Positions 1,378 through 32,946 of a DNA stretch of 42,044 nt are shown here, piece by piece. The DNA is from Desulfuromusa sp. (GTDB lineage: Bacteria; Desulfobacterota; Desulfuromonadia; Desulfuromonadales; Geopsychrobacteraceae), in NCBI GenBank assembly GCA_027858895.1, contig JAQIBX010000026.1:1-42044 (forward strand), given 5' to 3'. The notes beneath the pieces were generated by a model. It worked only from the letters and a program-made list of their open reading frames with translations, had not been told where the DNA came from and did no database searches. The position numbers were made by a program, and so were the translations under genes. The first letter of the stretch is position 1, and the number at the start of each line of letters is the position of its first letter.

Positions 1378-1386
1378 TGGAATTTT

Positions 1387-1414
1387 CCCAAACACCAGAC
1401 TTGACTATAACTCG
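1387..1414 (-). repeat. IS256 right terminal inverted repeat
   Basis: Read on the minus strand it begins CGAGTTATAGTCAAG and matches the left terminal repeat. It lies nine bases after the transposase stop codon. Confidence 0.75.
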
Positions 1415-2117: not shown

Positions 2118-5100
2118 TCACTCTGAAGAAAACATTTCTGAGAACTTTCTTTTCAACTGCCGAATCAAAGAAATCCTTAAACTTTCTGATAAATTGCATA
2201 TTCTTTCATAAATATCATCAATATGCATTCCATCAATATGGGACTGTACAGTTTTCCTCATTTTGCTGACTTCATCATAATTTTCATGATGAATATACTC
2301 AGGGACGCTGCTCAACTCTGACACGAGTTTTTCGCAGTGAACAACACTTCTAGTAGCAATAAACGGTATTTCATCCCTCACCTTGGTCAACCAAGTAATT
2401 TCTTTTTTCTGCCTTTCGTTCTCAACAGACTGTTTAATACTCGCAAAAATCAGATCAACAAATCTTGTTATTTCATTTCGGTCAACCAAAGAAATCCAAG
2501 TTGGTACATTGTTAAGCTTTGACAACTGTCTTTCACATTCAGGCACTGACCAAGAGTCAAGCTCATCAAGTTTAGGAGAAATATCCCTTAACCACTGAGT
2601 TGAAAGTTCCATTTTATCTTTAAGGATATTGTTTTTAAACTCAACATATACTTCTTCTAAATCACAAAACAGTTCGCCATCAGCACTCTCTACTTGACGT
2701 ATTATCTCCTGAATACGATGATCTACCTGCTCCTCAAGTAGTATTTCTAGTTCCTCAGGTGGAATTTCAAGTGATTCCCAGCGCTGCATGTCCTTCTTAA
2801 AAATCATTAGTTGTTCAAACACTTCAACAACATCATTTTCATCTTTGGTTCCTGAAAATATGTGCTGTAAATCCTTAACAAAGACCAGTAAGTTTTCTAC
2901 TGCTTGCAAACCGTCTATATGATAATTATAGACCTCACCTAAACGCTTCTTATGCTGACTTTCAATATCTGCATAAATATGTTTACGAGATTTAAGCTTA
3001 ACAATTAAATCAGATATGTCTTTAGCATCAATTTTTTTATAAGCTGCAGTCAAAGTAACTACCAGCCCATCTACTTCTTTAATATGATGCCTAAGCGAGA
3101 GCACTTTATCTTTCAATGTTGGTTCAGGCAAACGAACAATGTCAGTAGCCTTATTAAGACTCATTTCATACTCAGCACGCTTATCAATTTGATAAATAAT
3201 TGTATTTTTTTGTTCGTCTAGGCATGTTGCCTCATCTTCTAAGCCTAAAGTTTCTAGTCCACGAATCCTGTTCTCCATCTTTTCACGAAATACTGATACT
3301 TGCTTAATATTGTTACACGACTGGCTACTAATCCATTCAGCGAGGCTTACACTAAGCAATGAGTTGACATGAGACACCAATGCAGTTAACTCGTGAATTT
3401 GACTGTCTGCCCATAATTCGCTCTCCCCTTCCATCTTACTTATTTTCTGGGCAAACTTGCTCCCGCAGTAGATGAGGCTATCGACATTTCTTTGGCGTTC
3501 AGCTCTCTCAAAGCTTTTTTCAAGCTCCTCAAGCTCTTTATAATGTTTTCCAACCGTGAGCTCAGCTTCTAAGGCTTTATCCCTGACGTAAGAAAACATC
3601 CCTTCAAGAGACTCGGGCAAAGGGTCTGCTTTTCTTTGTTTTTCAGCGGCTTTAAAAAGTAAGATTTTCTGTGAAAGATTTTTTTCGTCTTCAATCTTTA
3701 TCAATATGGAGTTCCAACGTTGATTAGCATCTTCCTCCAGGAAGAGAAGGTTGGTCTTTGCAAGCCCCTGTATATCGAAAGAATATTTTCCTTTTTTATT
3801 TGGGAGGACATGCACTAACCATTCTTCCAGAGAGCAACTATCCCCATTAAGTTTTAAAGCCCGCGGTGGCAGCTCTTTAGCAAGCATTAATCCCAAGATA
3901 ACACCAGCAGACGATGCATTAAAGCCATAGGGTGGAGACAAGAGCATCTTGAAAGTTTCTCCCAGTGTTCTACCGCTGTCTTCGAGGTGTGCATTCTCAA
4001 CTACCTGTAGGACTTCAGCTAAAGGCTCTTCTTCGGGTTTTTGACGCAACTTTCCATCAGTTCCCAACACTTTCCAGTCCTGCACAAGTAAACGTCGTAC
4101 ACGATTTTGCATCGCTTTTTGTTGTAAGGCCACCCAATCACCGTTGACTTGTCGGCCCACGAGAGCTCTCATCAAGCTCATACAATCACGAGGACCAGCC
4201 CCCGATTTAGAACCAAACCCATCAAATGGGAATGAAATAACCTTCGGGTACACCTGCTCAAACAACCAGCTGGCAACGGCATTGAGCCTTTTTTCAGGGA
4301 CGTCTTCAATACCAGCGACGTAGTAATTACGTTCGAGTTGTGATTTTTGTACGCCATCTTTTAAAGCTCTAAGGGCCCTTTTTTGTTCCTCTGGGATAAA
4401 CCGACGAAACTTATCTTGTTCATCTGCACCAAATTCTTCGTCTACAACGTATGCCCTAGCCAAACTCTCACAAATCTTGCCATCACGATCATGTAAAACA
4501 ATTGACCAAATAGGAGCCTTCTGCTCATCCAAGTTACGTTTATAGGCCGCAGAAATTGCACAGGCTACAGCGTCATAATCCTCATCCTCCTGAACAAGAA
4601 CATATACAACGTGCCCCTTAGGATCATCGTGAGAACTTGCTGTTTTCCAATTCTCAATCGCTCCCTTCAAGACGCCACTGATATTTGCAGCGTCCGCAAG
4701 GGAGGATTCATAAAACCAATCAGAGGTTGATATGTTTTTTTTATTAGAGAAATCTGGATTAATATCCGTAAGTTCAGCGTAATTACTTCCCCTATGAATA
4801 AAAATTTCGCTAATTTTTTTTCTATCAATTTCTCTTAATTTTTTATTCAGTAACACCTGGAATTGTCCACGTGTCGCAGCATCCGCGATCAACTCATATT
4901 GGCCAAGGTCAGCATTCCACTCAACAACACCAACTTCATTACTCAGAGAAGAAAGGGTTGTATTTAAAATTTCATCAGACAACCCAGAAACAAAACCGAG
5001 TAATTTATCTACAAATAATTTCTCACGTGTTTCTATGCGCAACTTATCGAGTATCATTACCCCCGCGAGGAGCAATTTTTGCTCTGGCGTAAGCTTGGAC

Positions 5101-6620
5101 TTATACTTTTCTAAAACCGCCTGCAATGTCTCTGCGATAGAGCCACCTTGGGTACGTTCTGCTGCAATGATTTCAGGCAGCATACTTTGTAAAACCAACT
5201 CTGCTGGAGAGATATAGTAAAGATCACCGTCGATCTGATGAGGGTTGAACGCGACATTTTCAACAGCATCTTTGATAAACGTTAAAGCGGAACGTGACTG
5301 AACAATATCTTGTTGTCTTGTCAAAAACCATGTGGTCAACGGATGAAGAGGCCAACAACCATTGACGACCACTTGCTTAAACTTCTCAAAATCAGACCAT
5401 ACGGGGATCCGCTTGAATCCTGGCAAGCTCGAACAGAACAAACTATGGATCTCTGCCCATCCCCCTTTCGGCTGATAGGTCTCTAAAGCATGACTGAGCT
5501 TTTCTTCATCATGTTTTTCAATCAGGTGAGCAAATAAAGTTTCAAGGTTGGTAGAGAGATATAATTTTTCTGAAGAATCAAACCTAGTAATATATCTTTG
5601 TAACTGTAATAAATCCCGCTGGTTAAAACGATTCAAATATGCTTTTAATTCGTATTGAATAAAACCAACGAACCTTGCCTTGTCGCTACAGTCCTGTATC
5701 CCTTGGAATATTTGCTGCAAAGCTGAATCACCGGCCAAGTTGGGTTTTTCTGCTGCGTACTCTAGATATCGACCAAATTCATCAAACAAGATGACTAAGC
5801 CAGAAAAGTGACCTGCAGGGCCACAATAGACTTCACAGACAGTTTTTATTAAATCTTGTGCTGACTCATGGCCATCAACAGGAATTCTAGTGCCGTTTGC
5901 TTTAAAGAAGACATCGTCAACAATCGAATACAGATCCTCATCTTGTTCTTGTAATTTATCGATAATAGTTATTAGGGCTTCATTTATGCCAGCCTTATCA
6001 AACTCATTTTTTCTGAACTCATAATTTCTTATGACAAAATCTTCTGCATACTGAAAGCGTGGCGAGAGCTCGGTAATAGGATCTAAATCCACGTTTGCAT
6101 TCTTTAATTGTCGAATAATTCCGCGGCTCAGTTCACTCCCTAAGTGAAAATTCGACATACCATCGAGTGTAACAACCAATGCAGGTTTCTTCAGCTTCTC
6201 CAGTAATTCAGCAACATTATTGCCAATCTCTGCATCAGCGGCATAAATGTTCTTTAGTATGCAGAGCGCTTCTGGGGAATTTGGTTGACTTAAAAGTTGA
6301 GACGCAGTGAGAGCGAAATGAGACTTACCAGAACCGTATCCAGCAACTGCTAGCAAAAGAGGGTTGATATTTAAGGTGTCAGGAGAGAGGCACAGTGAAT
6401 TAATCAAATCATGAATAAAAGTTGCCGTATCCGTTAGCTTGTAAGATCGGCTAACACCTTTATCATCATTTTCACTTACACCATGATAACGTGGCCCATG
6501 GAAAACAAAGTTTTCAGATGCAACCTTTGCACGTTCAGGGTTTTCTTGAGCCCATCTGAGTTGAACAGCTCCTTCGAAAAAAAGCTCTTTCTTAAATCCA
6601 ACCAGGTCTCCAATTACCAT
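2118..6620 (-). CDS. Large BrxC/PglY-like P-loop ATPase
   Basis: Last gene of the five-gene operon, 1500 residues. Seen: a Walker A motif GYGSGKSH at residues 94-101 and a hydrophobic Walker B VILFDE at 276-281. An N-terminal ATPase region of about 600 residues is followed by a long, charged, helix-rich tail with predicted coiled coils (roughly 1000-1500). The P-loop wording and overall plan resemble the BrxC/PglY (DUF6079-like) ATPases of BREX and Pgl phage-defence systems, which are usually about 1200 residues. The assignment is by resemblance only. The ATG follows AAGGGGGGAACATA, a strong ribosome site, 16 bases after the preceding gene. A restriction or sensing role is inferred from context. 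It could instead be an unrelated defence AAA-type ATPase. Confidence 0.72.
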   Translation of the reverse strand: MVIGDLVGFKKELFFEGAVQLRWAQENPERAKVASENFVFHGPRYHGVSENDDKGVSRSYKLTDTATFIHDLINSLCLSPDTLNINPLLLAVAGYGSGKSHFALTASQLLSQPNSPEALCILKNIYAADAEIGNNVAELLEKLKKPALVVTLDGMSNFHLGSELSRGIIRQLKNANVDLDPITELSPRFQYAEDFVIRNYEFRKNEFDKAGINEALITIIDKLQEQDEDLYSIVDDVFFKANGTRIPVDGHESAQDLIKTVCEVYCGPAGHFSGLVILFDEFGRYLEYAAEKPNLAGDSALQQIFQGIQDCSDKARFVGFIQYELKAYLNRFNQRDLLQLQRYITRFDSSEKLYLSTNLETLFAHLIEKHDEEKLSHALETYQPKGGWAEIHSLFCSSLPGFKRIPVWSDFEKFKQVVVNGCWPLHPLTTWFLTRQQDIVQSRSALTFIKDAVENVAFNPHQIDGDLYYISPAELVLQSMLPEIIAAERTQGGSIAETLQAVLEKYKSKLTPEQKLLLAGVMILDKLRIETREKLFVDKLLGFVSGLSDEILNTTLSSLSNEVGVVEWNADLGQYELIADAATRGQFQVLLNKKLREIDRKKISEIFIHRGSNYAELTDINPDFSNKKNISTSDWFYESSLADAANISGVLKGAIENWKTASSHDDPKGHVVYVLVQEDEDYDAVACAISAAYKRNLDEQKAPIWSIVLHDRDGKICESLARAYVVDEEFGADEQDKFRRFIPEEQKRALRALKDGVQKSQLERNYYVAGIEDVPEKRLNAVASWLFEQVYPKVISFPFDGFGSKSGAGPRDCMSLMRALVGRQVNGDWVALQQKAMQNRVRRLLVQDWKVLGTDGKLRQKPEEEPLAEVLQVVENAHLEDSGRTLGETFKMLLSPPYGFNASSAGVILGLMLAKELPPRALKLNGDSCSLEEWLVHVLPNKKGKYSFDIQGLAKTNLLFLEEDANQRWNSILIKIEDEKNLSQKILLFKAAEKQRKADPLPESLEGMFSYVRDKALEAELTVGKHYKELEELEKSFERAERQRNVDSLIYCGSKFAQKISKMEGESELWADSQIHELTALVSHVNSLLSVSLAEWISSQSCNNIKQVSVFREKMENRIRGLETLGLEDEATCLDEQKNTIIYQIDKRAEYEMSLNKATDIVRLPEPTLKDKVLSLRHHIKEVDGLVVTLTAAYKKIDAKDISDLIVKLKSRKHIYADIESQHKKRLGEVYNYHIDGLQAVENLLVFVKDLQHIFSGTKDENDVVEVFEQLMIFKKDMQRWESLEIPPEELEILLEEQVDHRIQEIIRQVESADGELFCDLEEVYVEFKNNILKDKMELSTQWLRDISPKLDELDSWSVPECERQLSKLNNVPTWISLVDRNEITRFVDLIFASIKQSVENERQKKEITWLTKVRDEIPFIATRSVVHCEKLVSELSSVPEYIHHENYDEVSKMRKTVQSHIDGMHIDDIYERICNLSESLRISLIRQLKRKFSEMFSSE

Positions 6621-6636
6621 TATGTTCCCCCCTTGA

Positions 6637-7464
6637 TCATACCAAATTATCGTAAAGACAATTAATTACCGTTTCGGCTGCAGCTGTCCTCAGAAGCAAT
6701 GCCTCACCTGTCTGGCGATCAATTTTCAACAAACCATTGTCAGCCATCCAATCGAGAAAAATATTCACTTCAACCTCTTTGCATCCAAGTGTTGCTAAAA
6801 AATTTGATGTGCCCTCAATATTTGCAATTGATATTTGTTGGTCGTTCGGAAAATATTCCTCCCATGCTGACAGGAGGAGAAAGGCATATCCATAATAAAA
6901 CTCTTGAGTCATTGGGGCTATGCTTCTTACGATCGTCCCATTTTCTTCCACTAACGCTCGACAAAGGTCAAAACTAGAATCATTTGAATACATGCGCAAA
7001 AGGGGACTTATATTCTTAAAAGGCGTTTTAAGGTACGTCGTAAGATCATCACGAAAGAATGTTCGCCCTAAAGGCAGTTGCCCTTCTCCAAACACCCTGT
7101 ACCAAGCTTCTGCACCGCCTTGACGACGACAAAACATTAAATGTAAAAGCCATTGCGTCAAATTTTCTTTGAGGTAAATATCCTGTTCAAATATCTCTTC
7201 ACCAAAGGAAGTTAAACTCAAGCGGAAGCATGCACCACCAATGCGTTCAACGTTTAGAAGCCCCATGCCTTGAGCATACTTAATCGTTGGTTCGACTTTA
7301 CCAGTAGATTTACCCGTTGGAATACCAGTAACACTCGAAATTTTATCAATGGTCCCCTGTTTTTGTGACTCAGCGAACTGCATAAGCTTTGCAAGATAAC
7401 TACTTTCAGGCGCAAATGTATCGTGAAAGGATAAAGGCAGTCTTATAAACTGATCTTTTGACAA
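6637..7464 (-). CDS. DUF4007-like small protein of the defence operon
   Basis: 275 residues. The N terminus reads LPLSFHDTFAPESSYLAKL, followed by a putative winged-helix region (IDKISSVTGIPTGKSTGKVEPTIKY...MGLL) and then LTSFGEEIFEQDIYL. This order (F-H-[DE]-T-F, helix-turn-helix-like block, LT..GE.IF..D.YL) resembles DUF4007, a family known near Dnd/phosphorothioation-linked and other defence genes. The function is unknown; a DNA-binding or adaptor subunit is an inference. I use the TTG at 7464: AGGAG lies eight bases upstream, whereas the nearby ATG at 7469 is out of frame and too close to it. The ribosome site overlaps the stop codon of the upstream gene, which implies coupled translation. 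Confidence 0.65.
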   Translation of the reverse strand: MSKDQFIRLPLSFHDTFAPESSYLAKLMQFAESQKQGTIDKISSVTGIPTGKSTGKVEPTIKYAQGMGLLNVERIGGACFRLSLTSFGEEIFEQDIYLKENLTQWLLHLMFCRRQGGAEAWYRVFGEGQLPLGRTFFRDDLTTYLKTPFKNISPLLRMYSNDSSFDLCRALVEENGTIVRSIAPMTQEFYYGYAFLLLSAWEEYFPNDQQISIANIEGTSNFLATLGCKEVEVNIFLDWMADNGLLKIDRQTGEALLLRTAAAETVINCLYDNLV

Positions 7465-7476
7465 ACCATTGACTCC

Positions 7477-10400
7477 TTATGCTTTAATGCGACTTTCAAG
7501 TGAATTTATTTTTAACGGGATAACTCTATCCCTTAATCGTTCATCAGAGGAAGCAACTGGACCTAGCGACAAACATTCACCTTTTTGAAGACTTTTTAAT
7601 CGCTGCACCCACTCGTCACGATTAGTTCCCGGAACATTATCTTTTAAAATATCTGCATAGCGCTTCACTTCTGTATCTGCAGGGGCAAAGAAGAGCTTAT
7701 GGCTTGCTTGAAATAATCGATCACGTTCTTCAGAATCAAAGTTGCTCAAAGTTTGTGTCGCAAGGATCAAAGAGATTCCAAACTTGCGACCTTCTCTAAG
7801 AAGCTTATCCAAAGGCGAATCATTTCGATGATCAAGGTTCTGAATTTCATCCAAAACAATGGGTAAGGGATTATCTTTATTACCACTTGAAGTCGCATAG
7901 TCATAAATATCCCAAAGAATAAATTCTGATATAATTCTTTGAAACTCCCTAGGAATTCTAGCAAGTTGCAATATATGTACTTTTGAATCATTACAGTTCA
8001 GCATTTGCTTCCAACCTGAATCAGATTTTTCCCTGAAGGGCTTCATTTTTATCAAAGGTGTTATCTTGTTTGACAGCGCTATCCCAACATCACCCTCTTC
8101 CTCTAAGCACTCAATTAACGTGTCAAGATCGAATTGATGATGTGATGAAAGTCCACTCTCAATGGCACGAATCAAAGCTGCAAATTGCTGCTGTCCAACA
8201 CTGTCAAACACTGAAGAGAAGACATTTGCAACACGGGTGGCCACATTAAAATCACTTTCTTCAATTGAACCAAAGCCCTCGATTACTGTGATTTGTTTCC
8301 TAAATGGATTCACGGGAAGTGGTTCTTTGATCACAAGATGCGTTTTCGGTTTTACAATTTGTGTGAAAGCCAGTTCAACCTGATTGGGCAAAAACCCATC
8401 TGTGTAATCAACGATCAAACTGTTCTGTTGCCTAAGTGCCAATTCTGCCAATAAACATTGAATCGCATAAGTTTTCCCTGAGCCTGAAGCTCCAAAAATC
8501 AACATGTGCCTATTGTTCAGATTTTCATGCCCATACTCCCAAAATATTTGTTGGTCACTACGATCTACACCTAATAATAGCCGGTTAGGAACGTCGTTGG
8601 TCAGCACAACAGGACCAAAGCCCTTAGGCTCTAGTGTTGGTTCTGGTGTTGGTTCTGGTGTTGGCTCTGGTGTTGGCTCTGGTGTTGCACTCTTGCATTG
8701 ACTACACAAATACTTAAGACAACTTCCAGGAATTTTTAATTCAGAATCACTGTTTTCCGAAAATAAGTTGGCAACAGCATCATGTCCGTATTGAAAATGG
8801 TAAATGTGGAAACCATCGAGAGACTTGTTACCATCAGCAAAACCGGTAACAGCAGGGTACAGTTTGGATGGTTCCGTTTTTAGATTTTGCTGATCAGACC
8901 AAAGAGTAACAACAGCGGCTTGCCACTCAATGTCAAAGTAACCTTCAACTAAATGCTCAAATGCTGCATTAACTTTATAAGAAACATCTTTAGTGAAATT
9001 CACCAAAGATCTAGTTGCAATAGCCCGCTGGAGTTGCGCCCACCAATAACGTCTATCAAATGCCGCGCTGCTCTCATCTTCAGTGTTTGGTTTAAATATT
9101 TGGGTAAGTCGAGCTAGACCAGCCTTAGTTTGTTCTATCGCCTTGCTAAGATGTTTGTCATTCGTCAGTGCTAATTTACACTCTATGATTGAAGCTTTTA
9201 TCTTAACAATTGAACCTTCCAAAAAGACCTCAAAACGAAGCAGATCAGGTCTTTGATTAACGTCCGCACCGTGAAACCAATGTTGCACAGAGTCAATTGG
9301 AACAATTTGCGTCATAATCGCGTTAGGCGAAGAAGAAAAAGCCTTTTTAACCATTGCATAAGCAACCACATCACGAATGTGCTCACTATTTCCAATGGCC
9401 TTAACAAGAGACAAACCTGTTATTTCTTGTGATTCTGAAATGACACTCTGAGAAACGAAGTTGCACTGTGATGTATCCCACGCAGGGTAAAGTACAGACA
9501 AGCGCTCACGCATTAAAACGATTAGACGGGACAACGTGTCCGCTTCTGTTGAAATAGTTAGGTTAAGTTCACCAGACAATCCAAGACCAGAACTAAATCC
9601 TACAATCTTACGATCTATAGCGTCATCAACACCGACATGATCGACTAACATTTTATCAATGTATGGATCAATACAAGCCAACCATTGAGTGTGCCTATGA
9701 AGCGCGGCGACAACTTTCTCCCAATCCGACATATCGACTCGGCCAAACACCAAATAGTTTTGATTTTTAGCGTTATGAGGGTGCTTTAGCCTAGCGCTCA
9801 ATTCAACATGACAGGTCTGCGCTCGTAACCGCCGGTTACTTAAAAGCGTCTGTCTTTGGTTCTCTTCAAATTTATTAACCGGACGAGGGTATTCTGAAAT
9901 TGGAAACTTATCGATATTCGAAGGTGAAAAATTGTATTCAAAAGGCGCAACCGGCTCAACCTCATCTCCGCCTTGTTGACTCATCATAAATTTGAGGAAA
10001 AAAGTAACATCAAAATCAGAGTTTTCCTTTTCAAGGAAATCCAAAACGTTCTTCCCTTGGGGAGCATAACGATGTCCCACACGGATGTTACATTTTCTTT
10101 CACGCCCCTCTTGTTGCAACCAATAGTCACGCCAGGCGGAAAGTTGGTTTGTAATTGCGATAGGTGAAGAGGAAGAAGTATAAACTTTTAGGTAAAGCTG
10201 AAAAGGGACGGCACTATCACTCTGATCTTTAAGGTAATCAACTAAAAAGTGATGAATCCCAGATAATGTCATTTTTAAATCTGTTGCGTTGACAACCAAA
10301 ATTTGAATTTGGTCATGTGCATAGGGGTGTAATTTTTGGTAGTCAGATAAAGTTTTCTGAATGATTCGAGATTCATCGTTTGGCTTAACAATACTTGAGA

Positions 10401-12642
10401 TACTTTCATCATCCTCATTGCCTTGCTCTCGCATAATGGATTGTGAAGCAAGGCTTAACTCTGTGCTTGGGGAATCACCAAAACAGTGAACCAAACCATA
10501 AGAACGAATGCGCGTTGACAAACGATGGTCTTTATCTTTGACAATTGCTGCTAGTGGCCTTCTGATCTCAACAAGCCCAATCAACCGATCATAAAAAAGC
10601 TGACTTGAAATAGTTCCTCTTTCTAGTAACTCGGACGCAATATCTGGGAAATGCTTTATGAGATAGGATTCTCTAGCATAAGAAAGCTCTGCAACAAACG
10701 GCGCAATACTTAACGAAATTGCTGATGTAACAAAACTATCGCCGGGGACTGAATCACAATTAACGACTAAAAATGCTTTATAAAATCTATTAAGAAGTTC
10801 TGGACTGCCTTTTAAATCTTCACGCAAGAGTAGAGTCGTTAATTTCTCATAGGCCGAAAGAACATTAAGCAATTTCTCTTTGTTTGCTTCGTAATAACCT
10901 TTATTCACGAAGTGTTGTAGATAAGTTTTAAAGTGAGATGAAAGATCTTTGGACGCCGCAATTAACTTAACATCAAAATCATCCCGATTGGTACCAGCCA
11001 TGATATCGGAAACTTCTAGTTCAACCAACCCCTCTCTTACCAAACGGTTTGCTTCTTCTACATCGCAAGCGAAAAACAGTTCTGTAAAGGTTCTATTCAA
11101 TTTAAAGGTCGGAATTATTTGCTGCTGATATTTCTGAAGCCCCTCTAGAATTAAGGTAGCGCATTGAAATCTTACTTTCTCTTCTGAGTTGTCGTCTAAT
11201 GTCCAAATAAAGCTGCTTAGCTGGGAGTAATTATCGTAAATTGATGTTACATTTACCTCGAATTCGACACCCGCCTTTGCACGTGTTGACGAATAACGGA
11301 CACCGTAGTCATCTTTCCCAAATGTTAATTTGACTGGTATCTCTATATCGCGGCAAGGAGAGTCCGGGTCAGATTTCACTTCAATACTATCAAAAAGAAC
11401 CCTATCGAGGCCGCCTAGGCAGCCCTCCAATATCGCCTCTGCAGCCTCACTGCCGGTTAAAGAATCGTTATCAAAATCGGCGGTAATATTGTGCTTAAAA
11501 CCTACGATATTAACGTCAATTTTTGTTATGAGACTAGGAGCCCACTCGGTGCGGCACGATTTTTTGAAGTCTTTAAGTGTTAACCAAATTGCTTCAACAA
11601 AGGCACTGATACTTGGCCCATTAAGCCTGGTAACCCTTGTTGTTTTTTGTTTCCCAGGCCCTCTCTTTTTTAGAACCTCCAAGACTTGAGAGATGTCTGT
11701 TTTAAGAAGCTTTTGTTCATTTTCTCTATCACCATTTCTTATGAACTCAAATACAGTTTCAATGAAATCATCTAGGCTGCTGAAGATTGTTTCATCATTT
11801 AGCGTTTCAGGCATATTGATCTGCCCCGCACGCTTTGCTTCATCAATTTTATTAATAGCTTTTTTTCGTTCAGCTTTGGTGTTGAACATCTGGTGCTTAA
11901 TGAATTTCATAGCATCATTGAGCATCGTGGTAATTTTGTTGTCTGAACTTGGGATTTTAAAGAAAGGCGGAATACCCCATGCGGGTATTCGTTCAAAAAC
12001 ATGCTTAAGCAAATCTGTATTTGTAAAAAAGTAGGATTTATGAGGCAGTATATGATTTGAGAAGAAATCAGAGAGCTCAATTAAGCTTCTATGCCGATTT
12101 TTGTAGATAACGTCTAGAGCTACTGCTAAAGTTTGGGTGATTTTCTCACCGACCTGCAAGCCACAGTCAGAAATCAGTTGATTGACCCAGGGTTCATAGG
12201 AACCCTGCAGCACCTGATTCCATAGAATATCTTCTTTGACAACATGAAAATCTGACAACCCACCTTTATCCGACGCGTGGTCTAGGCCGATCAAAATGAT
12301 AACCAAAGCATCCTTGCCTAAAGGACAGCTTTTATTTCGATAAAATGTGAGTTTATCTTCGTCGTCAACCCAGCCCTTAATTTCAATTTTATCTAATTCG
12401 TGTGAAACCTCAGAGGTGTTACTTTTCCAGTCGAGCCATAGACCGCTGGCAATTTTCAAGTGGTATTCGATATTGCCTTCTTGCAGAAGAAAACTTTCCA
12501 TTTCTTCAAAAACTGTCTTGGCGTGCGAGAACGGAAGACTTTCAACAAAAAGACGAACTTCTCTATCAGAATCACCATCAGACAAAACTGTTTCACATTG
12601 TTGCTTCAAATAATCGACGAGAGTTTTAGAGAACATATCCAT
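7477..12642 (-). CDS. HerA/FtsK-like ATPase, DptH-like
   Basis: 1721 residues. The C-terminal motor domain has Walker A GASGSGKT at residues 1384-1391 and a Walker B with the DEIQNLDH motif (D1598, E1599), followed by DSPLDKLLREGRKFGISL and ATQTLS. That layout is typical of HerA-type DNA translocases and of DptH, the large ATPase of Dnd-dependent restriction, which has a similar length. A TPEP-repeat linker (1320-1339) separates the motor from a roughly 1300-residue N-terminal region I cannot assign. The inferred role is DNA translocation coupled to restriction. The ATG is 18 bases after the preceding stop, with a weak AAGG upstream. The DptH comparison is from memory of motifs, not alignment. 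Confidence 0.78.
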   Translation of the reverse strand: MDMFSKTLVDYLKQQCETVLSDGDSDREVRLFVESLPFSHAKTVFEEMESFLLQEGNIEYHLKIASGLWLDWKSNTSEVSHELDKIEIKGWVDDEDKLTFYRNKSCPLGKDALVIILIGLDHASDKGGLSDFHVVKEDILWNQVLQGSYEPWVNQLISDCGLQVGEKITQTLAVALDVIYKNRHRSLIELSDFFSNHILPHKSYFFTNTDLLKHVFERIPAWGIPPFFKIPSSDNKITTMLNDAMKFIKHQMFNTKAERKKAINKIDEAKRAGQINMPETLNDETIFSSLDDFIETVFEFIRNGDRENEQKLLKTDISQVLEVLKKRGPGKQKTTRVTRLNGPSISAFVEAIWLTLKDFKKSCRTEWAPSLITKIDVNIVGFKHNITADFDNDSLTGSEAAEAILEGCLGGLDRVLFDSIEVKSDPDSPCRDIEIPVKLTFGKDDYGVRYSSTRAKAGVEFEVNVTSIYDNYSQLSSFIWTLDDNSEEKVRFQCATLILEGLQKYQQQIIPTFKLNRTFTELFFACDVEEANRLVREGLVELEVSDIMAGTNRDDFDVKLIAASKDLSSHFKTYLQHFVNKGYYEANKEKLLNVLSAYEKLTTLLLREDLKGSPELLNRFYKAFLVVNCDSVPGDSFVTSAISLSIAPFVAELSYARESYLIKHFPDIASELLERGTISSQLFYDRLIGLVEIRRPLAAIVKDKDHRLSTRIRSYGLVHCFGDSPSTELSLASQSIMREQGNEDDESISSIVKPNDESRIIQKTLSDYQKLHPYAHDQIQILVVNATDLKMTLSGIHHFLVDYLKDQSDSAVPFQLYLKVYTSSSSPIAITNQLSAWRDYWLQQEGRERKCNIRVGHRYAPQGKNVLDFLEKENSDFDVTFFLKFMMSQQGGDEVEPVAPFEYNFSPSNIDKFPISEYPRPVNKFEENQRQTLLSNRRLRAQTCHVELSARLKHPHNAKNQNYLVFGRVDMSDWEKVVAALHRHTQWLACIDPYIDKMLVDHVGVDDAIDRKIVGFSSGLGLSGELNLTISTEADTLSRLIVLMRERLSVLYPAWDTSQCNFVSQSVISESQEITGLSLVKAIGNSEHIRDVVAYAMVKKAFSSSPNAIMTQIVPIDSVQHWFHGADVNQRPDLLRFEVFLEGSIVKIKASIIECKLALTNDKHLSKAIEQTKAGLARLTQIFKPNTEDESSAAFDRRYWWAQLQRAIATRSLVNFTKDVSYKVNAAFEHLVEGYFDIEWQAAVVTLWSDQQNLKTEPSKLYPAVTGFADGNKSLDGFHIYHFQYGHDAVANLFSENSDSELKIPGSCLKYLCSQCKSATPEPTPEPTPEPTPEPTLEPKGFGPVVLTNDVPNRLLLGVDRSDQQIFWEYGHENLNNRHMLIFGASGSGKTYAIQCLLAELALRQQNSLIVDYTDGFLPNQVELAFTQIVKPKTHLVIKEPLPVNPFRKQITVIEGFGSIEESDFNVATRVANVFSSVFDSVGQQQFAALIRAIESGLSSHHQFDLDTLIECLEEEGDVGIALSNKITPLIKMKPFREKSDSGWKQMLNCNDSKVHILQLARIPREFQRIISEFILWDIYDYATSSGNKDNPLPIVLDEIQNLDHRNDSPLDKLLREGRKFGISLILATQTLSNFDSEERDRLFQASHKLFFAPADTEVKRYADILKDNVPGTNRDEWVQRLKSLQKGECLSLGPVASSDERLRDRVIPLKINSLESRIKA
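8627..8686. repeat. Five tandem 12-bp units encoding TPEP linker
   Basis: Five consecutive copies of a 12-base unit (consensus GGTTCTGGTGTT / GGCTCTGGTGTT on the plus strand) encode a Thr-Pro-Glu-Pro ladder in the ATPase gene read on the minus strand. The unit is four codons, so gain or loss of a copy keeps the frame. It forms a stiff proline-rich hinge just before the HerA-like motor domain. Confidence 0.9.
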
Positions 12643-12660
12643 AGTTAACTAAACCTTGAG

Positions 12661-14208
12661 TTATTTATAAGGGTTTTCAACCATTGAGACAGCATCAGAC
12701 AATTCAATTAAGACACCGCCACGCTGTAACTCATCTTCAAACCATGAAGCATCTCTAGAAACGGCTAATTCGCCACGTGTCCTCCTAATCCATTTCAAAG
12801 CAATCGCTTGTTCTCTAGAAGCAATAGCAATTCCATAATGCGCGAATATTCTGCGATAAAATTCTGACAAACGAATACGACCTCCAGGGTTAATCAATGA
12901 ATAGACCAAGAATCTAATTAATTGTGGGGGCAAAACCAAACGTTGATTTTTTCCTGTGAGCGGAATAATCAGTCCGATTTCTTTACCAAGTTTCCTAAAT
13001 AATTTAAAAACATTATCGTCAGCCTTACTTAAATCATCTTCATTCGCAGGAAGCACTCCATCGGGGTAAGCCGACGGATTTCTGAGAACTCGGTACAACA
13101 TTTGTTCTATGCAATGATTACTTTCTTGAGCAAGCTTACGAGCTTCTCCGGCTATTTCACTATCCGGAGAGCAAACCACCCAAGCATAATTACCAACAAA
13201 TCCTTTCACCTGACCTTCCGTTTCACCTGTCTCTCCTAGGCGTCTTGCCTGTGAACAGAGGCTTCTTAATACATGCATACAGCACAGAGACTGCAGAAGT
13301 TCAGCTTTTTGAAGTGCTCCATGGCTTGAGTTGCATATATTTAGAATTTCAGAGGCAAACAGTAACGCCTCAGGCAGCGTCTGTTTGGGAATCCAGCCTA
13401 ATTTAGCAGGACCTTTATCGGCGAGGCTAAAATTTTCCAAACAATGCTCTACAAAATCAACCAATCGTCCAAAACTATCATCAACCTCAGTGAGCATTTT
13501 TTTTAACCCTGCTTCTATATCTCTTCGCAGAGTCAAGTCGATTTTAAGATGTAAATAATCTTTAGATGCGCGAATACTTTCAACTGCAGGGCTATCAAGG
13601 CTGCCAAAAAGGTTGACTAATTGTAAAAATAGAAGCTCTCCCCCCCTAGCCATGAAATTGTGAGCACTGACATCGAAACAATTGAGGAATTCACACCATT
13701 CTTTTCCTGTTCTTTTAATCGCCTTAGAATGTCTCCAGTCCACCTCCCTCGCTAAAAGGGAGCTAGAAAAAGGGAGAAACGCTTGAGTCGCCCATGTACG
13801 ATTTTTGGCAACTCCAACAAAACCCTCCAATAGGCTCTGAATTAAGTGGACATCAAAGTCTTTTTTTTCTTCTGTGGAACTAATTTTATTCCTGATCGAA
13901 TTCAGACCCTCTTTGTAGCTTTGAACATGTACAGGGTGACGAGTATCAAACTTTGATGAGGCAAAAAAGGAGAAGAGCTTTAAAGATATTTTATCCTCAG
14001 GCTTATACGTAGGATCTGCAGTATCGTCAGCTATTCCTTGAAAAGAAAAAAAGGAGTCCTCATCACTGCATTTTGGTGAGGAAAATGCCAATAAAAACTC
14101 AGCAAGGTATTCAACTGGCGTTTGATCTTTGTGATATCTGCGCCCGAAAAGACTAATTGCTGGATTGGAATCGGCGCCAATGCTTTTAATCTTTGGAAAT
14201 TTTTCCAT
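12661..14208 (-). CDS. Unknown 515-aa protein of the defence operon
   Basis: I do not recognise a named family. The protein is predicted soluble and largely helical, with no signal peptide or membrane segment. A notable stretch near residues 140-190 has W, R and E residues typical of a conserved core (NRTWATQAFLPFSSSLL, then REVDWRH and KEWCEFLNCF). I choose the ATG at 14208 over the one 18 bases upstream. It has GGAGGGG at the right distance, and it overlaps the previous stop as TAATG, a classic coupled junction. Its place between the kinase and the HerA-like ATPase matches the position of DptG between DptF and DptH in Dnd restriction loci. Whether it is a DptG counterpart is speculation. 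Confidence 0.7.
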   Translation of the reverse strand: MEKFPKIKSIGADSNPAISLFGRRYHKDQTPVEYLAEFLLAFSSPKCSDEDSFFSFQGIADDTADPTYKPEDKISLKLFSFFASSKFDTRHPVHVQSYKEGLNSIRNKISSTEEKKDFDVHLIQSLLEGFVGVAKNRTWATQAFLPFSSSLLAREVDWRHSKAIKRTGKEWCEFLNCFDVSAHNFMARGGELLFLQLVNLFGSLDSPAVESIRASKDYLHLKIDLTLRRDIEAGLKKMLTEVDDSFGRLVDFVEHCLENFSLADKGPAKLGWIPKQTLPEALLFASEILNICNSSHGALQKAELLQSLCCMHVLRSLCSQARRLGETGETEGQVKGFVGNYAWVVCSPDSEIAGEARKLAQESNHCIEQMLYRVLRNPSAYPDGVLPANEDDLSKADDNVFKLFRKLGKEIGLIIPLTGKNQRLVLPPQLIRFLVYSLINPGGRIRLSEFYRRIFAHYGIAIASREQAIALKWIRRTRGELAVSRDASWFEDELQRGGVLIELSDAVSMVENPYK

Positions 14209-17200
14209 TAAAGCCCCTCCAAACACTTATCATCATCTGATAATTCATATGAATAAGTTTTCACCTCACCCTCAATTCCAGCCTTAATTAAAGTGATAAC
14301 ACCATGAGAATCTTCTTCATTTTTGGTGTGCTGAATGGCAAGAAGTTGAGATCTAAAATGTTCAATTTGATTAGCATAAATTGGATCAAGGCCACAATCA
14401 AGATCCCCTGCACCTCTAGATGTGATGTAATCAAGCAATGGTAAAGACATCTCAAGACCTTTTTCTTCCTGATAATCTTTATGGATCAGTCTTGGTATTC
14501 TTTTTTTCTCATCAAACACTAATTTGAACTCATCAAATGAGAACTCTGCCAAGACAAGCTGTGAGGGTTGATGCACATTACGGTCAGAACGTTTTAAAGT
14601 CACATACAGTTTTTTGGTTGCTCCGTACTGCCCAATGCTGAACCCGGAATACTCTTCCAAGAGTACCGCCAACGTGTTGTCCAAAAGAGCCCTCTTCTCT
14701 GCACGAGAGGCAACGATAGCCCCCTTGTAAGCCCATCTTTCTAGATCGATCAAGCGGGAGGACTTCAAAAAATGATTGCAGTAATTACGGCTGAAAGAAG
14801 ATGCACCATCATTTAAGTCAGCAAACATATAGATTAAACGACGGAGACTTTGACGTGAATCTTTATTCCCAGGCTTAGAGCTCTTCCCAGCTAAGTAATG
14901 AGTGGTGGGTCCAAGAGATACCGGTACGCTAGCCCAATCCGCAAAATCTTCATTCAATATTGAGCGTTCTATTTGTGGAGAACTATGCACACCAAAGTGA
15001 TGGTATTTAAGTAACTTCATACAATAGAGAGCGCTATTCGCAGCCGATTCTTTTGCTTCACTGCCTCCAAAAAAAGTGTTACTAAAAACATGTGAGGCTA
15101 AAAAGTCCTCTTGTTCTGACGCTGTAGAGAAGCTTCTTTTCTTTTTTCTAATTTTTTTACAATTAAATCCAGCCGTTAAGCTGTACGCTAGATGAGAGCT
15201 CATCTGGCGCAATGTCATTCTTTGTCCATAAGATGAAAGCCTAGTGTATATCCAGCGCACCCTTTCACGGCTAATTGAACCAGCCTCTTTTAGGGCGGTG
15301 ACATTCAATGTGATGTGGCAACATTCCCTCGCATCACAAGAATCACAGTGTTCCCAGCTCGGGTGCGCAACGATTCGACCCAATACGTTCGAAGCTACGC
15401 CAACATTGTTTAGCTTGGCTAAATTGACAAGTAGTACTGGTTTTTTGAAACCATTGAGGCAGTGTTCTTCACTAGAGATTGATCCATCTACGGGCTGGTT
15501 CAATACACCAAGTATTGCATCTTCAACTTGTAATTTCTCTTCATCACTCTTTTTCAGAGCTGAGAATGAACTCAATAGAGGTCCAGTATTCGAAACAATG
15601 AGCCAACTGACAAACTCACCATCTTTTTCATCAAGACTATCCGTTAATATTTCTATACGCGCTTCTGCTGACAGCTCACTCATATCTTTAACTATATATA
15701 CGCATCGCCTCTCACCAAGAATGACTTTCTCGACTTCAATTGGTGGGGCATCAAGTTGCTTATCTTCCGGAAGGTTTTTCAGTTTTTTTAACACATCGAG
15801 TGCAATTGTTGATTTGCCATCACCTGCGTGACCGGTCAAAACGAGGACCACCGGATCTTCGCCGGTGAGATAATCACAAATATCTCCGACCAAACTGATC
15901 GGCTCATAAATATCAACAAAGTAGGGGTTGATTGATTGAGCTTCTGCAAGGGCATGCACGTTGTTAGCCGTAACATTATGCATTGTATTCAGATAACTAA
16001 CAAAACTTGGGGCGTGGCAATCTTGGGCCGCCTCATGATTACATTCAGCAGAAATAACGACCCTGTCTTGTTCCTCAGAAGAGATTTCTGTAATGCAAAC
16101 ATCTTCGTTTGTAATTTCTCTGAAAGCACTTAAAGCAAATTCAGCAGACCTGAAGCGCTCATCCTCCCCTCCCCAGCACTGACCAAACCAGTTATAGAGG
16201 CGCTTTCTCTGCTGCTCTGAACACTCCTCAAGATCAATGTCATTGAGATTGTGACTCTCGTTTGGGCGTTTGCCAACAAGCCATTCCCATAGAGTTACAC
16301 CGAGACCATAGATATCACCCGACGGCGAGGCATCAAGCTCACCCGCATCCAACAAATCTGGAGCAATGTAACCGCGAGTTCCACGATATGTGACTGGACC
16401 AGGAGTTGAAGCAGCACCAAAATCAATCAGGACTGTACGCCCACTCAACTCATCTACAAGAATATTATTAGGGTTGATATCATTGTGGATCACTCCAACA
16501 CTCGCATCATTTTCAATATTCGGGTGCATGGCTAAAAGCGTTTCGAGTAACTGGTTAGCAACAGACAGAAAATCATTCAGAGATGGTCGCTTGCCATTTT
16601 TTATGAGGTCTTTCAGCTTACAGCCCTCTACATATTCCATAACCAAACACCAGCGCCCATCATCCCACTGCATAAAACTTTTATATTTAGGGATGCAAGG
16701 TGAATCAGATTCCAAGAGCATGGAGCGTTCATGCAAGCATCTATCTTTTGATACTTCAGGGCTGTATAGTTTTAGTGCGGCCTGCTCGCCATGACAATCC
16801 CCCTTATAGACTTCACTTGTCGACCCTTCTGCTAACAGGTCTCCAAGTATCCAAGTATTAGAAGATCTAGCTAAAGTAGAGACCTTAGACGAAACATGTT
16901 CTGGAAGAACCCCCTGTAGCCGACCAACAACCTCAACTGCCTCGGGCCGGCAAGCAGCATCAAATTTCATTACATCAACAAGCAGACCTCTTAACTCAGC
17001 AGGAACATCGGTCGGTAATTTGTCGAGATGCTGTGGATTTAAACCCTCAGAGAGAATTCCATCACCTCGTTTTTTCGGTGGTTCACCTGCGAGCATTGTA
17101 AAGAACGTCACTCCCCAAGAATAAATATCTGACCTAGGGTCAGCGTCTCCCATGTGAACTTCTGGAGCCATATAAGGCAGATACTCTTTAGCAGGAGGCT

Positions 17201-18281
17201 CAAAAACTGTATACTCCTCGGTAGGATCATAAACTAAATCAAAATCGGTGAGCTGAGGAATGTCATCAGAATTAAGGAGTATGCTTTTGGGGGAGAGATT
17301 ACGATGTACAAGCATCTGGTCAGAGGAATGAATATGCAGCAATGCCTTTGCAACACCTAAAGCAATTTCAGACGCATGCGGCCAAGCTATTTGACCAACC
17401 TGACCAAGACGTTGCTCTAAAGTTTCAAATCCTAGCCACTCTGAGACCTCAACAACTAACTTCTTTTCGTTAGGGCACTGTGAAGCATGGTGGATATTCT
17501 CATGCTTATCAAGAGTCCCTAACTCTTTTAAACTTCTTACTTGCCTTGCATTTTTGATTGGATCATCACTTAAAACTCCAAACACTCGCAACCGATATAG
17601 GATATCTCCAAGAGGGGGAATTTTCGCAGCCAAATATGAAGAATAGCTATTTGTGTGCTCTAATTCATCGACAATACTATAGCCAGGAATTTGGTCTGTA
17701 TATTCAGCTTTTGGCTGATCAAAAATTTTGTCAAAATAGGCTCTAACCCTTGAGAAATCTCCATCAGATAAAGAGTTCCTATGAGTTCGTTTGCTTCTTT
17801 TTTTTAAATAATCAGCTAAAGAAGGTATCCCATCAAAAGTAATTTGTCCTTGGATTGAATCTTGTTTAAATAATGGATTAACACTATCTGCACCTGATAC
17901 TTCACCAGCGGGATTGGTCAAAACAACTATAGAATGTACAAATGGAATTTTGGAAACTGCGGGAAGGATTTTTTCAATCGTCGACCTTAAGACCTTACAC
18001 TTTCTGTTGTTCGATCGATGAGGATCGGGCACAGCTCTATAGCCCCGATACCATAAATCGTGGGAAACAGTGATCTCACCTCGCCAATGTTTGAGCTCTA
18101 CAATTGCACAATGCCCTTTCGAGATTACAACCAGATCACATTCAAGATATGCTTTTTTGCTGTCATCAAAAAGTTCAAAATTCGGGTAAATTTCAATATC
18201 GTCACCACATAAAAATGATGTATCAAGCTCCCCAAAAGCTAGTTTTTCATGTTCAAACTCACAGTTTTCATAAGACTTCAT
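14208..18281 (-). CDS. NERD nuclease / pseudokinase / Ser-Thr kinase / ATPase fusion (PglW-like)
   Basis: First gene of the operon, 1357 residues. Domains in order: (1) NERD nuclease-related domain, about residues 10-140, with D49 and E62-x-K64; (2) a kinase fold, about 270-460, whose catalytic loop reads HRN (N328 replacing Asp) and whose DFG is DFD (346-348), so probably a pseudokinase; (3) an intact-looking kinase, about 475-690, with K504, HND (D601) and DFG (D620); (4) a P-loop ATPase with GHAGDGKS at 817-824 and a cysteine cluster C979-x2-C982-x4-CC. NERD plus kinase is the plan of PglW from Pgl/BREX type 2; the C-terminal ATPase with a cysteine cluster recalls DptF. The ATG follows GAGGAACTCGT. 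It probably acts as sensor and signalling subunit, which is inferred. Confidence 0.82.
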   Translation of the reverse strand: MKSYENCEFEHEKLAFGELDTSFLCGDDIEIYPNFELFDDSKKAYLECDLVVISKGHCAIVELKHWRGEITVSHDLWYRGYRAVPDPHRSNNRKCKVLRSTIEKILPAVSKIPFVHSIVVLTNPAGEVSGADSVNPLFKQDSIQGQITFDGIPSLADYLKKRSKRTHRNSLSDGDFSRVRAYFDKIFDQPKAEYTDQIPGYSIVDELEHTNSYSSYLAAKIPPLGDILYRLRVFGVLSDDPIKNARQVRSLKELGTLDKHENIHHASQCPNEKKLVVEVSEWLGFETLEQRLGQVGQIAWPHASEIALGVAKALLHIHSSDQMLVHRNLSPKSILLNSDDIPQLTDFDLVYDPTEEYTVFEPPAKEYLPYMAPEVHMGDADPRSDIYSWGVTFFTMLAGEPPKKRGDGILSEGLNPQHLDKLPTDVPAELRGLLVDVMKFDAACRPEAVEVVGRLQGVLPEHVSSKVSTLARSSNTWILGDLLAEGSTSEVYKGDCHGEQAALKLYSPEVSKDRCLHERSMLLESDSPCIPKYKSFMQWDDGRWCLVMEYVEGCKLKDLIKNGKRPSLNDFLSVANQLLETLLAMHPNIENDASVGVIHNDINPNNILVDELSGRTVLIDFGAASTPGPVTYRGTRGYIAPDLLDAGELDASPSGDIYGLGVTLWEWLVGKRPNESHNLNDIDLEECSEQQRKRLYNWFGQCWGGEDERFRSAEFALSAFREITNEDVCITEISSEEQDRVVISAECNHEAAQDCHAPSFVSYLNTMHNVTANNVHALAEAQSINPYFVDIYEPISLVGDICDYLTGEDPVVLVLTGHAGDGKSTIALDVLKKLKNLPEDKQLDAPPIEVEKVILGERRCVYIVKDMSELSAEARIEILTDSLDEKDGEFVSWLIVSNTGPLLSSFSALKKSDEEKLQVEDAILGVLNQPVDGSISSEEHCLNGFKKPVLLVNLAKLNNVGVASNVLGRIVAHPSWEHCDSCDARECCHITLNVTALKEAGSISRERVRWIYTRLSSYGQRMTLRQMSSHLAYSLTAGFNCKKIRKKKRSFSTASEQEDFLASHVFSNTFFGGSEAKESAANSALYCMKLLKYHHFGVHSSPQIERSILNEDFADWASVPVSLGPTTHYLAGKSSKPGNKDSRQSLRRLIYMFADLNDGASSFSRNYCNHFLKSSRLIDLERWAYKGAIVASRAEKRALLDNTLAVLLEEYSGFSIGQYGATKKLYVTLKRSDRNVHQPSQLVLAEFSFDEFKLVFDEKKRIPRLIHKDYQEEKGLEMSLPLLDYITSRGAGDLDCGLDPIYANQIEHFRSQLLAIQHTKNEEDSHGVITLIKAGIEGEVKTYSYELSDDDKCLEGL

Positions 18282-18685
18282 ACGAGTTCCTCATCAGCAA
18301 CACTTGATACAAATAAAATATAAAAAGGTCATTAAAAGTTTGGTGTCGGCAGATTAACAGAAAAATTTGATTTGCGGTCGAGGCCCCTCCTTGATTCGCA
18401 GATAGGTATTTAAAAAATACATGTATTAATAACATGCAAGCAAGGTTTTTAATTTAAACTTTTAAAAAAACGCATTCCTGGCTTATCAAAAGGAAACCCC
18501 CGGTACTCTAAATTTTGTGAATGTGTATTCAGACAGTGTTTACCTGAAAATGTACGCTAAACATTCTCCCTTTGCAGACCCTGATTCTATAGGACCGCCA
18601 CTATTATGACCTCCCTCATAAAGATAGATGAACGCAGGTACTTCAGGAGGACAAAAACTAATTTTCAAGGTAACCATTGATTTCT
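18282..18685. other. Leader region upstream of the defence operon
   Basis: About 400 AT-rich bases without a credible gene, between the rhomboid gene and the kinase gene (both minus strand). It must hold the operon promoter unless transcription reads through from the rhomboid. A 12-base perfect palindrome, AATACATGTATT, lies at 18416-18427, about 135 bases upstream of the kinase start, and could be an operator. I see no convincing terminator. Confidence 0.4.
18416..18427. promoter_or_regulatory. Palindrome, possible operator of defence operon
   Basis: AATACATGTATT is self-complementary and sits in the AT-rich leader, next to a TTGCTT-like element on the minus strand. Short palindromes are common in AT-rich DNA, so the regulatory role is a guess. 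Confidence 0.25.
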
Positions 18686-31259: not shown

Positions 31260-31260
31260 G

Positions 31261-32936: not shown

Positions 32937-32946
32937 CACTCCTAAG

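What the first reader, a model, noticed from the sequence alone, without database searches (positions are those of the whole stretch)
2118..18281. Candidate undescribed five-gene defence system: kinase/NERD + unknown + HerA-like + DUF4007-like + BrxC-like
Seen: five minus-strand genes with gaps of 12-18 bases or a TAATG overlap, three of them giant P-loop ATPases (1357, 1721 and 1500 aa). Known: NERD-kinase is the plan of PglW, GYGSGKSH-type large ATPases are typical of BrxC/PglY, and a roughly 1700-aa HerA-like protein is typical of DptH. Inference: this is a hybrid of Pgl/BREX and Dpt-like parts without any methyltransferase, PglZ, BrxL or DndABCDE in the window, so self/non-self discrimination must work differently or rely on a modification encoded elsewhere. 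It sits on a mobile, IS-rich replicon.
Basis: partly seen in the sequence, partly recalled or inferred. Interest (0 to 1): 0.85.

Follow-up and report, generated by a model that had tools for sequence, protein, structure and literature searches.

The report
Orphan kinase-type Ssp restriction operon
Five linked genes on a mobile element form the DNA-attacking half of a known sulfur-marking (phosphorothioate) phage-defence system, in a kinase-fused and extended version, but the sulfur-marking half that its relatives carry beside it was not found in this genome assembly.

Summary
The five genes are real and intact, but not an unrelated new system. They are the restriction arm of an Ssp phosphorothioate (PT) system: NERD-pseudokinase-kinase-SspF (KF), SspG, SspH/DndH, and a second, diverged SspB/SspC pair (B', C'). 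The 'unknown' gene folds like DndG (Z 17.1), the DUF4007 gene like SspB (Z 21.2). The order F-G-H-B'-C', with or without the kinase fusion, recurs in distant bacteria beside canonical sspBCD: of 43 loci with uncut sspF and all five genes in order, 41 carry SspD in the locus (13 of 14 kinase-fused ones). So B'C' are not the modification pair but belong to the restriction arm, an extension I did not find described. In this assembly no SspB, SspC or SspD was found outside the window. The contig ends 2 kb after C' in insertion sequences, where two of the three closest KF relatives carry sspD and sspC. Loss, separation or missing assembly is likelier than a mark-free mechanism. A homologous kinase-F-G-H arm forms mad6-mad7-mad8 of MADS beside a methyltransferase, so this effector arm seems to pair with two different marks. 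Novelty: new variant of a known kind.

The parts
14208..18281 (-). KF: NERD nuclease-like domain + pseudokinase (HRN) + Ser/Thr kinase + SspF/DndF P-loop core, 1357 aa
   Evidence: Pfam NERD 8.6e-12 and Pkinase 1.3e-46; PADLOC SspF 1.9e-28 over 759-1111, mad6 8.4e-64, PglW 1.8e-40; motifs compared with relatives
12661..14208 (-). G: SspG/DndG-like DNA-binding subunit, about 515 aa from the ATG
   Evidence: PADLOC SspG 6.5e-15; AlphaFold model pLDDT 88.4 matches DndG 7exx: VIA-align Z 17.1, 344 residues, 5.2 A, next row Z 4.1; Foldseek ranks it first but only at E 0.034
7477..12642 (-). H: SspH/DndH-like, PD..ECK nuclease motif plus C-terminal HerA/FtsK ATPase, 1721 aa
   Evidence: PADLOC DndH 9.2e-63 and SspH 6.2e-20; profile hits DptH structure 7es4 at E 4.5e-11; motifs intact
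6637..7464 (-). B': diverged SspB paralogue (DUF4007), 275 aa
   Evidence: Pfam DUF4007 41.4 bits, cut-off 27; AlphaFold model pLDDT 92.2 matches SspB 6juf Z 21.2 over 266 residues, 3.5 A, Foldseek E 4.7e-8 to 6lb9
2118..6620 (-). C': diverged SspC/BrxC paralogue, AAA+ ATPase, 1500 aa
   Evidence: PADLOC SspC 5.3e-13; profile comparison with canonical SspC, 728 columns, 17% identity, E 5.4e-11, probability 97%; GYGSGKSH and FDEFG intact
18282..18685 (-). 404-base gap upstream of KF, likely site of the operon promoter
   Evidence: gap between KF and the next same-strand ORF; no sigma-70-like site found in it
1311..1886 (-). DUF772 transposase gene piece next to the 3' end of C'
   Evidence: Pfam DUF772; lies where L081 and L037 carry sspD and sspC
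109..1377 (+). Mutator/IS256-family transposase gene at the contig end
   Evidence: Pfam Transposase_mut 3.6e-68

Best explanation
The operon is the restriction arm of an Ssp-type phosphorothioate defence system, in its kinase-fused form. Shown: KF, G, H, B' and C' are homologues of SspF, SspG, SspH, SspB and SspC, and in relatives the same five genes sit next to canonical sspBCD. Inferred: B' (triple winged-helix) and C' (AAA+ ring or loader) form a DNA-scanning pair that, with G, checks DNA for the PT mark; H nicks and translocates along unmarked DNA; the SspF core is the nucleotide-dependent regulator, and the fused kinase/NERD parts control it or act as a backup effector. In this genome the modification half (sspBCD) was lost, separated by the insertion sequences at the 3' end, or lies in DNA missing from the assembly.
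For: Family hits for all five proteins. Folds of B' = SspB and G = DndG; H = DptH. The 4 other strong C' hits among 395 phylum genomes carry F-G-H-B'-C' with sspD and sspC upstream (PADLOC) and before them a gene I take as sspB from position and sequence; in 3 of 4, F has the NERD-kinase fusion. In 80 loci: 43 have uncut F and all five genes in order, and 41 of them carry SspD in the locus, 13 of 14 for the NERD-kinase type (two of the 80, L073 and L083, are the same contigs as G296 and G132). Of the two without, L093 has SspD elsewhere in its genome, L033 does not. B/B' and C/C' fall in separate clades with different conserved residues. In L081, L037 and L051 sspD and sspC lie downstream of C' on the opposite strand, where the window has insertion sequences. 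Own genome: an SspC model hits only the window, no PAPS reductase over cut-off, an SspD profile hits only a protein I read as GuaA, DUF4007 only in the window. SspFGH is reported to damage DNA lacking PT (PMC8092258).
Against: The defining partner SspD is absent from this assembly, so PT dependence is not shown for this copy. An intact SspFGH without PT should harm its host, according to PMC8092258, yet the window genes show little sign of decay. Of 20 genomes of loci without SspD in reach, 8 had none at E 1e-10: those of L029, L033, L049, L056, L060, L071, L085 and L088. L033 is the closest relative of KF, and L056 is also kinase-fused. Congener G470 has the end of H, B' and C' but no SspD (87% complete). 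The 80 loci were found with H of this operon type, which favours similar arrangements. In G210 the canonical sspC is itself in two pieces with two opposite-strand ORFs between. Five Psychrobacter loci have F-G-H without B'C', so the pair is not always needed. The role of B'C' is inferred from homology only.
Confidence: 0.8

Rival explanations
1. A stand-alone five-gene system that needs no DNA mark: KF senses infection (nucleotide or protein), and the kinase switches on the G/H/B'/C' nuclease machine only then. Self-protection is by regulation, not by marking.
For: No SspB/C/D found outside the window in the assembly; genes intact; L033, nearest KF relative, has no SspD detected and a PP2C-like phosphatase gene upstream of KF; 8 of 20 genomes searched had no SspD; Rakesh et al. 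2024 argue that DndFGH is often decoupled from modification (passages read).
Against: 13 of 14 NERD-kinase loci with all five genes in order carry SspD in the locus. In L033 only 2.2 kb upstream of KF and 0.9 kb downstream of C' are held before the contig ends, and the C' piece of G470 lies on a 3.4 kb contig. The window contig ends at an IS element.
Confidence: 0.12
2. A remnant: the operon lost its modification half by IS activity and is now silent or partly inactive.
For: DUF772 transposase piece and IS256-type transposase directly at the 3' end; B' has 3 of 29 near-invariant columns changed, rank 62 of 64; no sigma-70-like promoter found in the upstream gap.
Against: All five frames are open over 16 kb; near-invariant columns changed are G 0 of 67, C' 1 of 111, H 3 of 135, KF 4 of 109, several of them conservative; the catalytic motifs inspected are intact.
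Confidence: 0.12
3. A MADS or type 2 BREX (Pgl) member.
For: KF matches MAD6 (2.9e-87) and PglW (1.3e-35) models; Mad6-7-8 are homologous to KF-G-H.
Against: MAD6 score 293.6 against cut-off 460 and PglW 122.5 against 990; no methyltransferase, specificity subunit, PglZ or BrxL among the 20 other window ORFs scanned with Pfam; G does not hit mad7.
Confidence: 0.04

Closest known systems
SspABCD-SspFGH (Vibrio anguillarum FF-93; PMC8092258, sections 6, 9 and 10 read)
   Same: F, G and H homologues in the same order; relatives of the window operon lie next to sspBCD.
   Different: The published restriction cassette has three genes; here SspF carries NERD and two kinase domains and the arm has two more genes, B' and C'. 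sspBCD was not found in this assembly. FF-93 itself was not examined for B'C'.
DndFGH / DptFGH
   Same: H matches DptH 7es4 and G folds like DndG; NERD plus inactive and active kinase fused to DndF is already described (Rakesh et al. 2024, PMC10853773, passages and one part read).
   Different: Dnd modification uses DndBCDE rather than an SspB/SspC pair (recalled and PMC10853773); no PAPS reductase over cut-off in the assembly.
MADS (mad1-8)
   Same: mad6, mad7, mad8 are homologous to KF, G, H and in the same order in Bacteroides finegoldii L003; the G-mad7 link is the weakest (probability 85%).
   Different: In L003 the arm is paired with a methyltransferase and specificity subunit, and no B'C' hit was seen there.
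Type 4 BREX
   Same: Shares SspB/SspC/SspD-like genes; G533 has BCD followed by a second B-C pair.
   Different: Has PglZ and BrxL instead of F-G-H (G533 genes so named from sequence and recall).
PglW (type 2 BREX)
   Same: NERD + pseudokinase + kinase order at the N terminus.
   Different: C-terminal half is SspF here; score far under the PglW cut-off.

Membership tests
Ssp PT system, restriction arm SspFGH | SspF, SspG and SspH homologues encoded in order | tested here: met
   PADLOC SspF 1.9e-28, SspG 6.5e-15, SspH 6.2e-20 / DndH 9.2e-63; G fold = DndG
Ssp PT system, restriction arm SspFGH | Linkage to sspBCD modification genes | tested here: not met
   Not in the window; not found in the held assembly. 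Met for SspD in 41 of 43 related loci with all five genes in order. The assembly has 183 contigs, so absence from the organism is not proved.
Ssp PT system, restriction arm SspFGH | Restricts DNA that lacks PT; harmful without PT | not testable with these tools
   Reported for FF-93 (PMC8092258); needs experiment
SspB family | SspB fold and DUF4007 | tested here: met
   Z 21.2 to 6juf, 266 residues; DUF4007 over cut-off; but a separate clade from canonical SspB
SspC family | SspC/BrxC-type AAA+ ATPase along most of the length | tested here: met
   728 aligned columns, E 5.4e-11; separate clade from canonical SspC
MADS | MAD6 model cut-off and linked methyltransferase/specificity genes | tested here: not met
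   293.6 of 460 bits; no such genes in the 20 other ORFs scanned
Type 2 BREX (Pgl) | PglW over cut-off, PglX, PglZ | tested here: not met
   122.5 of 990 bits; no methyltransferase or PglZ Pfam hit in the 20 other ORFs scanned
DndFGH | DndH/DptH-type HerA ATPase and DndG fold | tested here: met
DndFGH | Linked Dnd modification genes | tested here: not met
   No PAPS reductase family member (DndC type) over cut-off in the assembly

The most novel reading that the evidence does not exclude
A lineage of kinase-fused SspFGH-B'C' operons (window, perhaps L033 and the congener G470) has dropped the sulfur mark altogether and works as a self-contained, phosphorylation-gated DNA-destruction system, with B'C' as its own target scanner.
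Probability: 0.1. Interest if true: 0.75.

Novelty: new variant of a known kind. Interest (0 to 1): 0.45.

Why it matters
It redraws the parts list of Ssp restriction. In most relatives of this type the effector arm is not three genes but five, with its own diverged SspB/SspC pair beside the modification pair. A dedicated second scanner could help answer how PT systems tell self from foreign when only a fraction of sites carry sulfur. The homology of mad6-7-8 with kinase-type SspFGH suggests one effector arm used with two different marks, methyl and sulfur. An intact arm without a detectable mark is a natural case for asking how such an arm is held in check.

Tried and rejected
Rejected: chance hybrid of Pgl/BREX and Dpt parts (recurrence). 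Rejected: B' and C' as the modification pair (relatives have both pairs; separate clades). Rejected as SspD in the own genome: a C168 open frame, which I read as TilS, and a C182 frame, which I read as GuaA; both named from sequence and recall.

Led nowhere: the kinase protein against plasmids brings mostly general kinases; C' and H against plasmids give 2 and 4 weak records. The weak C' hits L013/L014 (G373, G072) belong to a different operon; a neighbour in G373 is type IIG/DrmMI-like. A remnant of sspD between C' and the transposase piece was looked for by eye in six frames and not recognised. PDB sequence searches with the B', C' and G profiles gave nothing significant. hhalign of G with SspB or B' gave nothing. 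The RNA search found only a group II intron end. The MADS paper (10.1016/j.chom.2024.07.005) is not held, so whether its authors noted the SspFGH homology is unknown to me. FF-93 itself was not examined for B'C'.

Biases: the locus census used H of this operon type and kept 80 of 106 relatives. The profiles were built from the window and four relatives, two of which reappear among the 80 as L073 and L083. Loci with F cut at a contig end (7) or with no F in reach (21) were left out of the 52, and 9 of the 52 lack the full order and were left out of the 43. F types rest on my own ORF calls; in a few loci F is split or short (L035, L045, L051, L089), which may be frameshifts. In the trees, pieces outside the length limits were dropped (24 canonical and 64 prime B; 36 canonical and 55 prime C).
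Full report
WHAT IS THERE. The window is the whole of contig C160 (42044 bp) of a 2.78 Mb draft genome of 183 contigs, 98.66% complete. Five minus-strand ORFs of 1357, 521, 1721, 275 and 1500 aa fill 2118-18281, with gaps of 18, 12 and 16 bases and one stop/start overlap. G+C is 0.38-0.43 per 2 kb between 2001 and 20000, against 0.51-0.55 from 30001 to 40000.

WHAT THE PROTEINS ARE. PADLOC places all five in one system: SspF (residues 759-1111 of the first protein), SspG, SspH/DndH, SspB and SspC. The SspB, SspC and SspG scores are weak, as expected for diverged members; NERD-kinase families (mad6, PD-T4-6, PglW) score higher than SspF on the first protein. Pfam adds NERD and protein kinase to the first protein and DUF4007 to the fourth, over cut-offs. 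An AlphaFold model of the fourth (pLDDT 92.2) matches SspB crystal structures along its length (Z 21.2, 266 residues, 3.5 A). A model of the second (pLDDT 88.4) matches DndG (Z 17.1, 344 residues, 5.2 A; next row 4.1), although Foldseek alone gives that match only E 0.034. The profile of the third hits the DptH structure 7es4 (E 4.5e-11). The first protein therefore reads NERD - pseudokinase (HRN) - kinase (HND, DFG) - SspF core with Walker A GHAGDGKST (motif meanings recalled).

RECURRENCE. C' was used to search 395 genomes of the phylum. Besides the own genome it found four strong hits (E below 1e-160) and two weak ones. The four strong hits carry F-G-H-B'-C' in that order. Upstream of F they carry a PAPS-reductase gene scoring 38.8-57.6 bits to PF01507 (cut-off 22.5) and matching PADLOC SspD, preceded by canonical SspC and a further gene of about 300-350 aa that I take as sspB from position and sequence. 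In G210 the canonical sspC is in two pieces with two opposite-strand ORFs between them. In three of the four, F has the NERD-kinase fusion; in G210 it does not. A scan of GTDB genomes with H gave 80 loci. With profiles made here, B' directly follows H in 55 of 70 loci with at least 1 kb downstream, and C' follows in 44 of 57 with at least 5.5 kb. Five of the exceptions are Psychrobacter loci without B'C'; in some others B' or C' lies further along. Of 52 loci with uncut F, 28 have F alone, 9 NERD-F and 15 NERD-kinases-F, and SspD lies in the locus in 46. Of these 52, 43 have all five genes in order, 41 with SspD; for the NERD-kinase type 13 of 14. Among the six of 52 without SspD in the locus, L086, L093, L095 and L105 have it elsewhere in the genome, while L029 and L033 do not. 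In all, 12 of 20 genomes of loci without SspD in reach had it elsewhere; the other 8 are those of L029, L033, L049, L056, L060, L071, L085 and L088. I gave that of the loci without SspD, not all of them.

B' AND C' ARE A SECOND PAIR. Canonical and prime forms separate completely in trees of B (24 and 64 sequences) and C (36 and 55), with supports of 0.89-1.0. C' aligns to canonical SspC over 728 columns at 17% identity, B' to canonical SspB over 151 columns. Residues nearly invariant in canonical SspB (for example N and M of its G-x-N-M stretch, and E at window position 99) are different in B', which has its own conserved S-x-G-K stretch. Which SspB residues are catalytic I did not establish. 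This fits a dedicated pair serving the restriction arm; the role is inferred.

THE MISSING HALF. In the own genome, an SspC model hits only the window, PF01507 finds nothing over its cut-off, an SspD profile finds only a protein I read as GuaA, and DUF4007 is found only in the window. Upstream of KF the contig runs on for 24 kb, and none of the ORFs scanned there is one of these genes. Downstream of C' it has 2.1 kb with a DUF772 transposase piece and an IS256-type transposase, then ends. In L081, L037 and L051 sspD and sspC lie after C' on the opposite strand, 0.4-2.5 kb away; L081 and L037 are the second and third closest relatives of KF after L033. The simplest reading is that sspBCD stood, or still stands, beyond these elements. 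In most other loci SspD is upstream of F instead. The other contig end is a group II intron piece, so both ends look like assembly breaks at repeats. A congener, G470 (87% complete), has the end of H, B' and the start of C' on a 3.4 kb contig and no SspD.

IS IT INTACT? Near-invariant columns changed in the window: G 0 of 67, C' 1 of 111, H 3 of 135, KF 4 of 109, B' 3 of 29. B' (rank 62 of 64), KF (14 of 16) and H (50 of 59) lie towards the changed end. The catalytic motifs inspected in KF, H and C' are present. There is little sign of decay, though B' deserves a second look.

HOW IT MOST LIKELY WORKS. In Vibrio anguillarum FF-93, SspFGH protects together with IscS-SspBCD, all three genes being needed, and damages DNA that lacks PT, host DNA included (PMC8092258, sections 6 and 10). 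I infer the same logic here: B'C' and G scan DNA, H nicks and translocates, and the SspF core gates the reaction. Rakesh et al. 2024 (PMC10853773, passages and one part read) already described NERD plus inactive and active kinase fused to DndF and proposed such domains as co-effectors. The 2026 BREX survey (PMC12839542, passages read) notes the same module in PglW and DndF. The kinase may instead control the arm; L033 has a PP2C-like phosphatase gene upstream of KF, and plasmids L003 and L006 have one next to H.

RELATION TO MADS. In Bacteroides finegoldii (L003), mad2, mad5, mad6, mad7 and mad8 homologues occur as methyltransferase, specificity subunit, kinase protein, G and H. Profile comparison with L003, L004 and L006 links the SspF core (503 columns, E 1.9e-16), H (248 columns, E 3.2e-8) and, more weakly, G (112 columns, E 6.6e-6, probability 85%; 62% with the five-sequence alignment) to the window's families. 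So one effector arm appears to be used with two kinds of mark.

NOVELTY. Searches of the held library for SspFGH with SspBCD, DUF4007, BrxC, PglW, MADS, NERD and kinase terms gave no paper that, in what I read, describes a B'C' pair in the SspFGH arm or the MADS link. Besides the papers above I read passages of PMC12904381, PMC12707154 and PMC12421847; the other listed papers I saw only in the listings. Subscription papers, including the MADS paper, are not held, and no supplementary files were read. The kinase-F fusion itself is known. I file this as a new variant of a known kind.

Noticed in passing
L003:15617-31043; L004:15434-30611: Bacteroidota plasmids carry methyltransferase + specificity subunit + kinase-F + G + H; L003 matches mad2/5/6/7/8, so the MADS effector arm is homologous to kinase-type SspFGH. 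L006 shows the same kinase-G-H order by size and similarity, its upstream genes unchecked.
   Followed up: partly
L033:215-1006: PP2C-like phosphatase gene upstream of the kinase-SspF gene in a Bradymonadales bin, the closest relative of the window's KF; similar genes next to H in L003 and L006.
   Followed up: partly
L114:9538-19899 and L117:1-9280 (G533): sspB-sspC-sspD followed by a second, different B-C pair, then PglZ-like, BrxL-like and cysteine desulfurase genes: looks like type 4 BREX merged with Ssp.
   Followed up: partly
L108:1172-2599 and L017:1-3864 (G210): Canonical sspC lies in two pieces with two opposite-strand ORFs between them, so the modification half of this relative may be broken too.
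   Followed up: no
L005:16210-30375: Rhizobium anhuiense plasmid: NERD protein, a 600-aa protein and a large ATPase followed by two DNA methyltransferase genes; possibly another mark-swapped version.
   Followed up: no
window 41919-42044: Group II intron (RF02012) cut by the contig end.
   Followed up: no
window 29499-40525: Sigma-54 activator, branched-chain amino acid type ABC transporter, iron alcohol dehydrogenase, aldehyde ferredoxin oxidoreductase and thioesterase genes: a catabolic cargo cluster of higher G+C.
   Followed up: no
window 18686-20648: Rhomboid-TPR membrane protein and a short UvrD C-terminal piece upstream of the operon, on the same strand.
   Followed up: no
L048:17512-22155; L069:16427-21094: In two Bacillota bins sspD is about 550 aa (twice the usual length) and the modification order is D-B-C, downstream of C'.
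   Followed up: no
L086, L095, L100, L104, L105: Psychrobacter loci have F-G-H without B'C', so the second pair is not strictly needed in every lineage.
   Followed up: no
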